Shown piece after piece: positions 26,821 to 29,259 of a stretch of DNA of 36,633 nucleotides. The stretch is from an uncultured Chromatiales bacterium (lineage in GTDB: Bacteria > Pseudomonadota > Gammaproteobacteria > Steroidobacterales > BM003). The stretch's first letter is position 1, and each line of letters begins with the position of its first letter. The position numbers were made by a program, and so were the translations under genes. The stretch lies in NCBI GenBank assembly GCA_937128475.1, contig CAKZML010000294.1:1-36633 (forward strand), in the 5' to 3' direction. Under the pieces are notes generated by a model. That model was not told the origin of the DNA. It worked only from the letters and a program-made list of their open reading frames with translations, and made no database searches.

Positions 26821-29259
26821 TTAGTTGAATGGCTTCGCACGTGCTATCCATTCATCCAGATTGTCTTCGTTCGGGTTCTTGGGCTTACCGGGATGAATGA
26901 TCGCAACCGGGCACTTTTCTGCCGCCAGGACGAGTTCCTGGAAGCTGCCGGCATCGGCATCCTTGATGTAAGCCTGTTTTTCACCGTCGTAGGCGAAAAT
27001 GTGGGCTGACATCTTGGTGCAGTCATCACAACTGGTGCACAGGGGCGTGTCGATGTAAGGCTCATCCAGACTGATGGGCTCATCGTCTTCGTCTTCCTCA
27101 ACAGCCTCGGCCACTTCTTCGACCGGAGCGTCTACGGTGGCCGGAGCCGCCGCGGGACGTGCCGGAGTCGGCGAGGGTGCAAAGCCGGCCGGTGCACTGG
27201 CGCCACTAATAAGCTGGCCTGCAATCCTGCCGACGATTTCACGAGTGAGATCGCCAAGGTTGGTGTCTAACTGACTCTCGGTCTCGGCCTGAAGTTCGGC
27301 CAATCGCGTCTGTAACTGTTGTTCAAGTTTTGCCTGCTCGGCGGCCATCAGTGACTCTGCATGAGAGTTCTTGATACCACCGGCTTCTTGCAATCCACGC
27401 CAGCGGTTTGCAACAGCGTCAACCTGGCCCAATACCCGGTAATTGATGACTACCTTGCGAATTTCGTCTTTGTCATCTACCGCGATAATGTAAGGCACGC
27501 AGTTGCGACGTCTTTCGGTTTCCAGCGCGAGGAATTCATCCAGCGGAATCATGGCCTCATCAGACATTCCATGATCCAAAACCCAGAAATCTTCCTGCCA
27601 ACGCACGTCGGCCAGCAGAAAATCTGCGTGGGAGTAGGTCAGTTCTGTCGCGCTTTCCTCGGCAGATTCATTCATGAAGCTGAAAATATCACTGACCCAG
27701 GTGCGATCATCCCGAGGATTGCCTTCAAGGCTCATTCTTTGAGCCAGGTCTGTTCCGTTGGAGGGATTGAACACAAAGGTGGGCAGGGCTCGGGACTCAA
27801 GTGCCGATGCCGCATCAAGGTAGGTGGGCAGAGTTGAGTTTACCTCACCATTGCTTGTGTAAACACTCAGCAAGGCGGGTCCCTGGTAAGCTGCGGCAGC
27901 TGCAAATGCCTTGCGCAAGCCATCCGGGTTCGACGAGGTTCCCTGGAATACAAATGCCGAACCCAAAGACGTTGCCGAAGCTGCCAGTCGGGTGGGCCAG
28001 GCGGGAGAATTACTTCGTTCACCTGCGTCAAGCGAATTTAATTGCAGAACCACCTTGATGGCAGCATTGCTGTCCAGCAGTTCCATTAATTCGCCTGCGT
28101 CGGAGAGCTCTACTTCATCCTGCGATAAATTCAGCACCACTGGTGGGCAAAGAGACCGTTCTTCTTCGCTCAGGTGGGTGTAACCAAAGTCATTAAAGAA
28201 TCCGTCATGGATTTCGCTCTTGTACTGGTTTTCAAGTTCCAGTTCCGCAATCCGAATGGCCCGGAAAAAACTGACCATACACGCTTCGCGCTGGTTAACC
28301 TGGAACACCGCATCAGCAACGCTGGTGGAGTGAGCCTGCATATCGAACGGAGCATCCAGGGTGCTGGCAAGTCCGTAGACAGGGAGCATTTTCCTGAGAG
28401 TTTCCAGGACCCCTGCGATTCGTGCATTACGCTCCGCCGGGAGGGTCTCCGCCTTAGGTGTCCGGTCAAGTAACTCGGACATGCGGTCGAAGTCCAGGTC
28501 TTCACGGCCAGACGAACCCAGAACATTGCGTAGATGGTCGGCTGAACGGGCTTCCGGTTTGTGCTCGGCATCTGCACGGAGTATCCCGGCAAGACGATGC
28601 ACCAGTTTCTCGAGTTCTATTCTGAATGGTTCGCAGTGCAGGCTCCAGTACTGGCGCCCAACACTTTTGTATAGCCGTGAAGGGATTGCGGAAGAACAAT
28701 CGGCCACGTAGGTATGATCAGGCAATGAAGCGATGATCAAATCCAGGTCGCTGTTCAATACCACCTTGCGGGGCTCTTCCATGGTGGAATTCGCAAGCAT
28801 CTGCTCACGTACCCGTGCCGCCAGTTCCTGCAGCTCAGCGATGGTGTCGCCGGCCAGGGCATCTTTCAACGCCGCCTCGAACTGGTAGGCATGCCGACGC
28901 AGACGCTCCCGGGGATCACCGTCAAGACCGGATTCATTAACGATATTGTCAATGCGTGTGGTCAGAGGCTGGGCTTCGTCACGACCATCGGGGCCAGGAA
29001 TCAATAACGGGTATTCATGGCGAATACTTCGCAAATCCCGGAACGGATGCAACAGGGCAGGCCACACTCGAAAAGTCGTGGCAGGGGTTACCCTGTGCCC
29101 ATGAAGGTGAAATTGAAGCAGGGCACGCAGCACCTTGGCGGGTAGTAAACTCTCATCTGGCTTGACCGCCGGTTGCCTGGGCAAACCGGTACCAGGCCCC
29201 GCAGTCACAGGAGCCACTGGCGCGTCCACTGATGCTGTTTGTACGGATTCCTTGGCCAT
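26821..29259 (-). CDS. 812-aa protein: unknown N-terminal region, degenerate PFOR C-terminal-like domain, coiled-coil/acidic linker, C-terminal single 4Fe-4S ferredoxin
   Basis: SAFVFQGTSSNPDGLRKAFAAAAAYQGPALLSVYTSN resembles the PFOR TPP-domain region; linker PSPTPARPAAAPATVDAPVEEVAEAVEEDEDDEP; ferredoxin CTSCDDC...KCP. Confidence 0.8.
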   Translation of the reverse strand: MAKESVQTASVDAPVAPVTAGPGTGLPRQPAVKPDESLLPAKVLRALLQFHLHGHRVTPATTFRVWPALLHPFRDLRSIRHEYPLLIPGPDGRDEAQPLTTRIDNIVNESGLDGDPRERLRRHAYQFEAALKDALAGDTIAELQELAARVREQMLANSTMEEPRKVVLNSDLDLIIASLPDHTYVADCSSAIPSRLYKSVGRQYWSLHCEPFRIELEKLVHRLAGILRADAEHKPEARSADHLRNVLGSSGREDLDFDRMSELLDRTPKAETLPAERNARIAGVLETLRKMLPVYGLASTLDAPFDMQAHSTSVADAVFQVNQREACMVSFFRAIRIAELELENQYKSEIHDGFFNDFGYTHLSEEERSLCPPVVLNLSQDEVELSDAGELMELLDSNAAIKVVLQLNSLDAGERSNSPAWPTRLAASATSLGSAFVFQGTSSNPDGLRKAFAAAAAYQGPALLSVYTSNGEVNSTLPTYLDAASALESRALPTFVFNPSNGTDLAQRMSLEGNPRDDRTWVSDIFSFMNESAEESATELTYSHADFLLADVRWQEDFWVLDHGMSDEAMIPLDEFLALETERRRNCVPYIIAVDDKDEIRKVVINYRVLGQVDAVANRWRGLQEAGGIKNSHAESLMAAEQAKLEQQLQTRLAELQAETESQLDTNLGDLTREIVGRIAGQLISGASAPAGFAPSPTPARPAAAPATVDAPVEEVAEAVEEDEDDEPISLDEPYIDTPLCTSCDDCTKMSAHIFAYDGEKQAYIKDADAGSFQELVLAAEKCPVAIIHPGKPKNPNEDNLDEWIARAKPFN

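What the first reader, a model, noticed from the sequence alone, without database searches (positions are those of the whole stretch)
26821..29259. 812-aa protein with a ferredoxin domain tethered on a flexible acidic linker behind a degenerate PFOR-like domain
The C-terminal roughly 75 aa form a single-cluster ferredoxin (CTSCDDCTKMSAHIFAYDGEKQAYI...AAEKCPVAIIHPG). It is preceded by a coiled-coil-like stretch (EQAKLEQQLQTRLAELQAETESQLDTNLGDLTREIVGRIAGQLI) and a low-complexity linker PSPTPARPAAAPATVDAPVEEVAEAVEEDEDDEP. The middle domain resembles the PFOR TPP region but has no GDG (reads NLSQDE). The N-terminal roughly 350 aa match no family I recognise. The position directly after korB suggests a swinging ferredoxin carrying electrons from KorB to RnfB, by analogy with lipoyl-domain swinging arms.
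Basis: partly seen in the sequence, partly recalled or inferred. Interest (0 to 1): 0.86.

Follow-up and report, generated by a model that had tools for sequence, protein, structure and literature searches.

The report
Dead PFOR carrying a tethered ferredoxin
This gene encodes the catalytically dead remnant of a large pyruvate-oxidising enzyme that keeps only a ferredoxin on a flexible tether; it is inherited with a separate 2-oxoacid oxidoreductase (KorAB) and most likely ferries that enzyme's electrons to the energy-converting complex encoded beside it (Rnf here, Nfn in most relatives).

Summary
The N-terminal ~300 aa are not unknown. X aligns collinearly (residues 45-812) with the C-terminal half of intact 1650-1680-aa PFORs that carry the same Fd tail and sit in Rnf operons (profile P 1e-82). 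X is thus a hollowed-out PFOR: every cofactor site is lost except the Fd (4 Cys in 81/81 proteins, TPP motif in 0/81). X lies directly behind korB in all assessable relatives, in at least ten phyla, with one KorB clade. The acceptor genes alongside are either Rnf plus a second degenerate PFOR (as here) or NfnAB (most relatives), never both; one switch explains this. Tether length separates the two contexts without overlap (111-126 vs 56-90 residues). AlphaFold gives folded body, disordered linker and folded Fd in both types. Best reading: X docks on KorAB and its tethered Fd relays electrons to RnfB or NfnB. Fd, tether, ancestry and gene linkage are shown by sequence; docking and electron flow are inferred. 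No Pfam/NCBIfam model covers the body, and I found no paper describing it.

The parts
26821..29259 (-). X, 812-aa pseudo-PFOR with tethered ferredoxin (whole gene)
28699..29139 (-). X residues 41-187: degenerate PFOR delta domain, no cluster cysteines
   Evidence: hhalign to intact long PFOR; model; boundaries approximate
28360..28698 (-). X residues 188-300: helical insert of the TPP domain
   Evidence: boundaries approximate
27382..28359 (-). X residues 301-626: pseudo-TPP domain, paralogous to the C-terminus of the 1525-aa protein
28114..28131 (-). NLSQDE (residues 377-382) at the place of the TPP-binding GDG
27208..27366 (-). X residues 632-684: long helix
27076..27207 (-). X residues 685-728: disordered Ala/Pro/Glu-rich tether
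   Evidence: pLDDT <50; conservation 0.26
26824..27075 (-). X residues 729-812: single-cluster [4Fe-4S] ferredoxin (C741, C744, C747, C783) and its C-terminal tail
30273..32231 (-). korA, 652 aa, 2-oxoacid oxidoreductase gamma-alpha subunit
29267..30250 (-). korB, 327 aa, TPP and single-cluster subunit, motifs intact
25921..26799 (-). rnfB
21357..25934 (-). second degenerate PFOR, 1525 aa: keeps both delta-domain CxxCxxC motifs, lost domain-I motif, proximal cysteines, GDG; no Fd tail
19989..21323 (-). rnfC
18955..19992 (-). rnfD
18221..19135 (-). rnfG (open frame; true start further downstream)
17617..18258 (-). rnfE
17039..17620 (-). rnfA

Best explanation
X is a non-catalytic accessory subunit of a KorAB-type 2-oxoacid:ferredoxin oxidoreductase. 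It descends from an Rnf-linked PFOR that already carried a C-terminal ferredoxin on a tether. One copy lost the catalytic half and all cofactor sites of its delta and TPP domains, but kept the fold (as a docking body), the tether and the Fd. KorAB does the chemistry (2-oxoacid + CoA -> acyl-CoA + CO2 + 2 electrons). The tethered Fd picks up electrons at the single KorB cluster and swings to the ferredoxin-oxidising module encoded alongside: RnfB in the window (perhaps via the two clusters of the second degenerate PFOR), NfnB in most relatives; possibly in reverse under reductive conditions. Shown here from sequence: ancestry, loss of sites, conservation of the Fd, predicted tether disorder, co-inheritance with one KorAB clade, alternative Rnf/Nfn contexts. 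Inferred: physical docking on KorAB, electron path and direction, substrate (2-oxoglutarate is only a guess).
For: Collinear profile alignment to intact Fd-tailed PFOR in RnfB-PFOR-RnfCDGEA operons, P=1e-82. Less-trimmed X frames of up to 1486 aa, one still with POR/PFOR_II remnants. Fd Cys 81/81, GDG site 0/81. Fd is the most conserved region, linker the least apart from the N-tail. KorB directly upstream in 71 of 71 assessable loci (one search counts 67/72; searches show that four of the other five have an extended X starting at the end of korB and the fifth is cut by its contig end). KorBs with X form one side of a 99% branch against 20 KorBs without X. Of 56 loci with enough sequence 44 have NfnB upstream, 10 RnfB downstream, none both; one more has NfnBA convergent behind X. 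One change of context on the tree against about 17 in shuffles. Tether length 111-126 (Rnf) against 56-90 (Nfn), no overlap. Disordered linker and folded Fd in both types. Parallel case: another PFOR lineage with a different Fd-like tail is followed by a GltD/NfnB-like flavoprotein.
Against: No biochemical or structural data on any member. A KorAB-X or X-Rnf contact could not be modelled (single chains only). The Rnf-to-Nfn change is a single event, so the mutual exclusion is not replicated. The second degenerate PFOR may be the real electron conduit in the window. Nfn-type X has four semi-conserved body cysteines that could hold a cofactor, against a purely structural body. Foldseek TM-scores to whole PFOR are low (about 0.2), so fold identity rests mainly on the sequence profile.
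Confidence: 0.72

Rival explanations
1. X and the second degenerate PFOR together form a scaffold-and-wire complex: the degenerate PFOR, with its two delta clusters, takes electrons from KorB and passes them to the Fd of X or straight to RnfB/RnfC. The Fd of X is then an exit relay of a larger assembly, not a simple arm between KorB and RnfB.
For: The two proteins have complementary remains of the ancestral PFOR: delta cysteines in 13 of 14 degenerate PFORs, Fd only in X. Every Rnf-linked locus with enough sequence has both. The genes are interleaved with rnfB.
Against: The large Nfn-linked group (47 loci) has X but no degenerate PFOR beside it, so X works without it there. L043 has lost the delta cysteines.
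Confidence: 0.4
2. X is an independent ferredoxin pool on a carrier: a large soluble ferredoxin that is co-expressed with KorAB but does not form a stable complex. The body serves only to select redox partners.
For: No complex is shown. Ferredoxins are commonly encoded beside their oxidoreductases. Fd is the only cofactor site left.
Against: A body of some 600 residues of PFOR fold, an obligate oligomerising enzyme family, is conserved at 0.48-0.55, far more than a free ferredoxin needs; X is tied to one KorB clade.
Confidence: 0.18
3. X is regulatory or structural: a pseudo-enzyme that assembles or inhibits KorAB or Rnf, with the Fd acting as a redox sensor.
For: Pseudo-enzymes often become regulators (general knowledge); the body is conserved.
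Against: A tether that differs in length between the two acceptor contexts and the constant pairing with ferredoxin-oxidising modules fit electron transfer better.
Confidence: 0.08
4. X is a decaying gene remnant without function.
For: All catalytic sites are lost.
Against: Open frames, invariant Fd cysteines and many invariant body residues across at least ten phyla.
Confidence: 0.01

Closest known systems
Single-chain pyruvate:ferredoxin oxidoreductase (PFOR; Desulfovibrio africanus 1b0p, Moorella 6cin)
   Same: Collinear delta and TPP domains (via the intact long PFOR); Foldseek top hits
   Different: No TPP motif, no proximal cluster, no delta clusters, no catalytic N-terminal half; has a tethered Fd
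Intact Fd-tailed long PFOR in RnfB-PFOR-RnfCDGEA operons (loci L092-L094; found here)
   Same: Same C-terminal linker and Fd, same operon partners
   Different: Those keep all motifs and are presumably active; X has lost them and goes with KorAB
Pyruvate:NADP+ oxidoreductase (PNO) of Euglena and Cryptosporidium (from memory)
   Same: Electron-acceptor domain fused behind a PFOR
   Different: PNO has an active PFOR and a flavodoxin-reductase-type module; X has a dead PFOR and a ferredoxin
KorAB-type 2-oxoacid oxidoreductases (Magnetococcus 6n2n, Sulfolobus 5b46)
   Same: KorA and KorB of the window match these
   Different: No X-like subunit is listed in those entries; they use free ferredoxins (from memory)
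Lipoyl-domain swinging arms of 2-oxoacid dehydrogenases (from memory)
   Same: Carrier domain on a disordered Ala/Pro-rich linker
   Different: Carries electrons on an Fe-S cluster, not acyl groups; not homologous
Nfn-like AadN and KorAB as electron suppliers of benzoyl-CoA reductase (PMC9973337)
   Same: Kor and Nfn both act on ferredoxin in one physiology
   Different: Treated there as alternatives; no X-like subunit is mentioned in the section read

Membership tests
PFOR (catalytic enzyme) | TPP/Mg motif GDG in the TPP domain | tested here: not met
   0 of 81 at the aligned site; window reads NLSQDE
PFOR (catalytic enzyme) | Proximal [4Fe-4S] cysteines | tested here: not met
   In the window only C188 aligns with one of them
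PFOR (catalytic enzyme) | Delta-domain dicluster cysteines | tested here: not met
   Absent from the aligned region
PFOR ancestry (delta and TPP domains) | Collinear profile match along both domains | tested here: met
   736 columns, P=1e-82; the top 18 Foldseek hits are PFORs
Single-cluster [4Fe-4S] ferredoxin (Fer4_13) | Four cluster cysteines and the fold | tested here: met
   Above the Pfam gathering score; 81/81 Cys; TM 0.84 to 1fxr by target length
Single-cluster [4Fe-4S] ferredoxin (Fer4_13) | Holds a redox-active low-potential cluster | not testable with these tools
   Needs EPR or voltammetry
KorAB-type 2-oxoacid oxidoreductase (neighbouring korA, korB) | Intact TPP and cluster motifs and alpha/beta subunit matches | tested here: met
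Rnf complex (neighbouring genes) | rnfA, B, C, D, E, G encoded together | tested here: met
   A, C, D, E above NCBIfam subfamily cut-offs; B and G match clearly but score just below theirs
Swinging-arm carrier (works like) | Flexible linker between body and carrier domain | tested here: met
   pLDDT <50 in two orthologues; low conservation and variable length
Swinging-arm carrier (works like) | Carrier visits two active sites | not testable with these tools
   Needs a structure of the complex or kinetics

The most novel reading that the evidence does not exclude
A widespread, undescribed class of 2-oxoacid oxidoreductase in which a pseudo-PFOR subunit physically couples KorAB to an energy-converting complex (Rnf or bifurcating Nfn) through a covalently tethered ferredoxin, so that electrons are channelled and do not enter the free ferredoxin pool.
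Probability: 0.5. Interest if true: 0.85.

Novelty: new variant of a known kind. Interest (0 to 1): 0.74.

Why it matters
Ferredoxin is normally pictured as a diffusible pool. A conserved tethered ferredoxin on a dead PFOR, inherited with KorAB and set beside either an ion pump (Rnf) or a bifurcating transhydrogenase (Nfn), suggests dedicated electron channelling from 2-oxoacid oxidation into energy conservation in many bacteria, including Photobacterium, Rhodoferax and Accumulibacter. It also shows an enzyme turning stepwise into a carrier subunit with intermediates preserved, and it names gene sets (NfnA-NfnB-KorA-KorB-X in cultured Photobacterium lipolyticum and Cohaesibacter marisflavi) in which the idea can be tested.

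Tried and rejected
Rejected: 'new N-terminal domain' (it aligns with the PFOR delta domain and insert); 'window-specific oddity' (365 loci); 'chance fusion of an Fd' (81/81 conserved); 'KorAB replaces a missing 2-oxoglutarate dehydrogenase' (sucA present). Led nowhere: literature searches for a Kor or PFOR-Rnf tethered ferredoxin gave nothing specific; the 2003 Azoarcus evansii 2-oxoglutarate:NADP+ oxidoreductase paper is not held, so whether any subunit of that enzyme is X or an NfnB-like protein stays open; the plasmid search gave two distant hits without useful annotation; a third acceptor module suspected behind X in L024/L026 was not found, only a short unidentified gene. An apparent 1826-aa KorB-containing frame in L064 was judged a chance open frame in GC-rich DNA, not a fusion.

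Full report
WHAT IS THERE. The stretch 26821-29259 is open only on the minus strand and encodes 812 aa, called X here. It lies in a tight minus-strand run korA (30273-32231), korB (29267-30250), X, rnfB (25921-26799), a 1525-aa degenerate PFOR (21357-25934), rnfC, rnfD, rnfG, rnfE, rnfA (to 17039). The gap between korB and X is 7 nt, between X and rnfB 21 nt, and rnfB overlaps the next gene (coordinates).

Pfam finds only Fer4_13 in X (residues 736-789, E=3e-8); NCBIfam finds nothing consistent in 64 family members. AlphaFold on a 64-row alignment gives mean pLDDT 85: folded body, helix 632-684, disordered 685-728 (and 1-23), folded Fd. An orthologue from Photobacterium lipolyticum gives the same layout with a 17-residue helix and a 25-residue disordered stretch. 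Foldseek: the top 18 PDB matches of the X model are PFORs (E 2.6e-5 to 2e-3; TM-scores are low, about 0.2, in a multi-domain model with an insert), and ferredoxin I (1fxr) matches the tail at TM 0.84 by target length.

WHERE IT CAME FROM. In other genomes of the same order an intact PFOR of 1650-1680 aa stands between rnfB and rnfC and carries, behind its TPP domain, a linker and the same kind of Fd (loci L092-L094). A profile of 81 X proteins aligns with it over 736 columns, from X45 to X812 (PFOR 756 to 1679), P=1e-82; the N-terminal part of X alone (residues 41-330) still gives P=7e-10. The N-terminal ~300 residues of X are therefore the delta domain and the helical insert of the TPP domain, without cluster cysteine motifs. 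The motif table shows: intact long PFORs keep YPITPST, both delta CxxCxxC motifs, CxxC, NATGC, GGDGAMYDIG and VYSNTGGQ. The second degenerate PFOR (14 members) has lost the domain-I motif, the proximal-cluster cysteines and usually GDG, and ends without the Fd tail, but keeps the delta cysteines in 13 of 14. X has lost all of these and keeps the Fd. In five loci (L017, L019, L020, L039, L044) the X frame runs to 1224-1486 aa (L044 is cut by its contig end); in L019 Pfam still sees POR and PFOR_II remnants. So X is a PFOR that eroded step by step while its ferredoxin was kept.

WHAT IS CONSERVED. C741, C744, C747 and C783 are present in 81 of 81; the GDG site in 0 of 81. Mean column conservation: Fd 0.78, pseudo-TPP 0.55, pseudo-delta 0.48, helix 0.34, linker 0.26. 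The linker is Ala/Pro/Glu-rich in all groups; in the window its net charge is -10.

WHO IT LIVES WITH. A scan of 85,488 species genomes found 365 loci that encode relatives; the best 80, from at least ten phyla, were fetched (phyla). KorB lies directly upstream in 67 of 72 loci by script; of the other five, four have an extended X that begins at the end of korB and the fifth is cut by its contig end, i.e. 71 of 71 assessable. KorBs with X form one side of a 99%-supported branch against 20 KorBs without X. In a sample of the class, the four best KorBs have X and the 26 other loci fetched (L125-L150) have none.

TWO ACCEPTOR MODULES. Of 56 loci with over 5.2 kb upstream, 44 have NfnB upstream on the same strand (NfnA too in nearly all), 10 have RnfB directly downstream, none has both, 2 have neither; one of these two (L032) has NfnB-NfnA convergent behind X. 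The identities are a GltA-type NADPH-dependent protein (TIGR01316) and a PRK06222 sulfide/dihydroorotate-dehydrogenase-like protein, i.e. the two Nfn subunits. On a tree rooted with intact PFOR, the Rnf-linked X form the basal grade and all Nfn-linked X one nested group; a single change suffices against about 17 in shuffled labels. This is one event, so the exclusivity is a strong association but not replicated. The tether (G628 to C741) is 111-126 residues in Rnf-linked X (n=20) and 56-90 in Nfn-linked X (n=47), without overlap. Both modules exchange electrons with ferredoxin (established knowledge of Rnf and Nfn), which is why the Fd of X is the natural link. A separate PFOR lineage (L101-L105) has an intact PFOR with a different Fd-like tail (CTNCKKC...C) and is followed directly by a GltD/NfnB-like flavoprotein: an apparently independent case of the same pairing.

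MECHANISM. KorA and KorB of the window keep their motifs and match solved 2-oxoacid oxidoreductases, so they are the likely catalyst. KorB has one cluster; X offers one cluster on a tether. The best reading is an electron-swinging arm: KorB cluster -> Fd of X -> RnfB (window) or NfnB (most relatives). Shown by sequence: ancestry, site loss, Fd conservation, predicted tether disorder, co-inheritance, alternating contexts. Inferred: docking, path, direction, substrate. The main rival is that the second degenerate PFOR, with its two remaining cluster motifs, is part of the wire in the Rnf type. The genome also has a 2-oxoglutarate dehydrogenase E1, so KorAB-X is not its only route from 2-oxoglutarate, if that is the substrate.

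PRIOR ART. I found no paper on a tethered ferredoxin in Kor or PFOR-Rnf systems in the held library. Riftia symbionts are reported with a dimeric OGOR korAB(3) and a 'PFOR-like' gene that fall together under sulfide limitation (PMC11636981); whether that gene is X or its sister is not stated in the text read. PMC9973337 treats Nfn-like AadN and KorAB as alternative electron donors to benzoyl-CoA reductase. Subscription literature is mostly not held, so an older description cannot be excluded.

VERDICT. Real, conserved, widespread and without a family name; a new variant of the 2-oxoacid:ferredoxin oxidoreductase theme.

Noticed in passing
loci L101-L105 (G065, G069, G057, G100, G092): Intact long PFOR with a different Fd-like tail (CTNCKKC...C) on a Gly/Ala linker, followed directly by a GltD/NfnB-like flavoprotein with a long N-terminal extension.
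   Followed up: partly
Nfn-type X, columns equivalent to window X residues 188, 314, 377, 616: Four body cysteines conserved in 33-41 of 47 Nfn-linked X but less so in Rnf-linked X (15, 6, 0, 6 of 20); possible extra cofactor or disulfides.
   Followed up: partly
L092-L094: Operon RnfB - intact Fd-tailed PFOR - RnfCDGEA: an apparently active PFOR with tethered ferredoxin inside an Rnf operon.
   Followed up: partly
L151 (genome G191, one contig): X frame breaks just before the Fd; the Fd is intact in another frame and korA is also split. Probably sequencing frameshifts.
   Followed up: partly
L022 and L043, second degenerate PFOR: These keep GGDGA and TGGQ although domain-I motif and proximal cysteines are lost; L043 has also lost its delta cysteines.
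   Followed up: no
window 13990-16739, minus strand: FMN-dependent lactate-dehydrogenase-like gene and an FAD-binding dehydrogenase (PRK12834 above cut-off) downstream of rnfA on the same strand.
   Followed up: no
window 6175-10512, plus strand: Malate synthase, isocitrate lyase family protein and isocitrate/isopropylmalate dehydrogenase family gene side by side.
   Followed up: no
G000:C223 (L120): A second, distant KorA/KorB-like pair in the same genome without X beside it in the stretch fetched.
   Followed up: no
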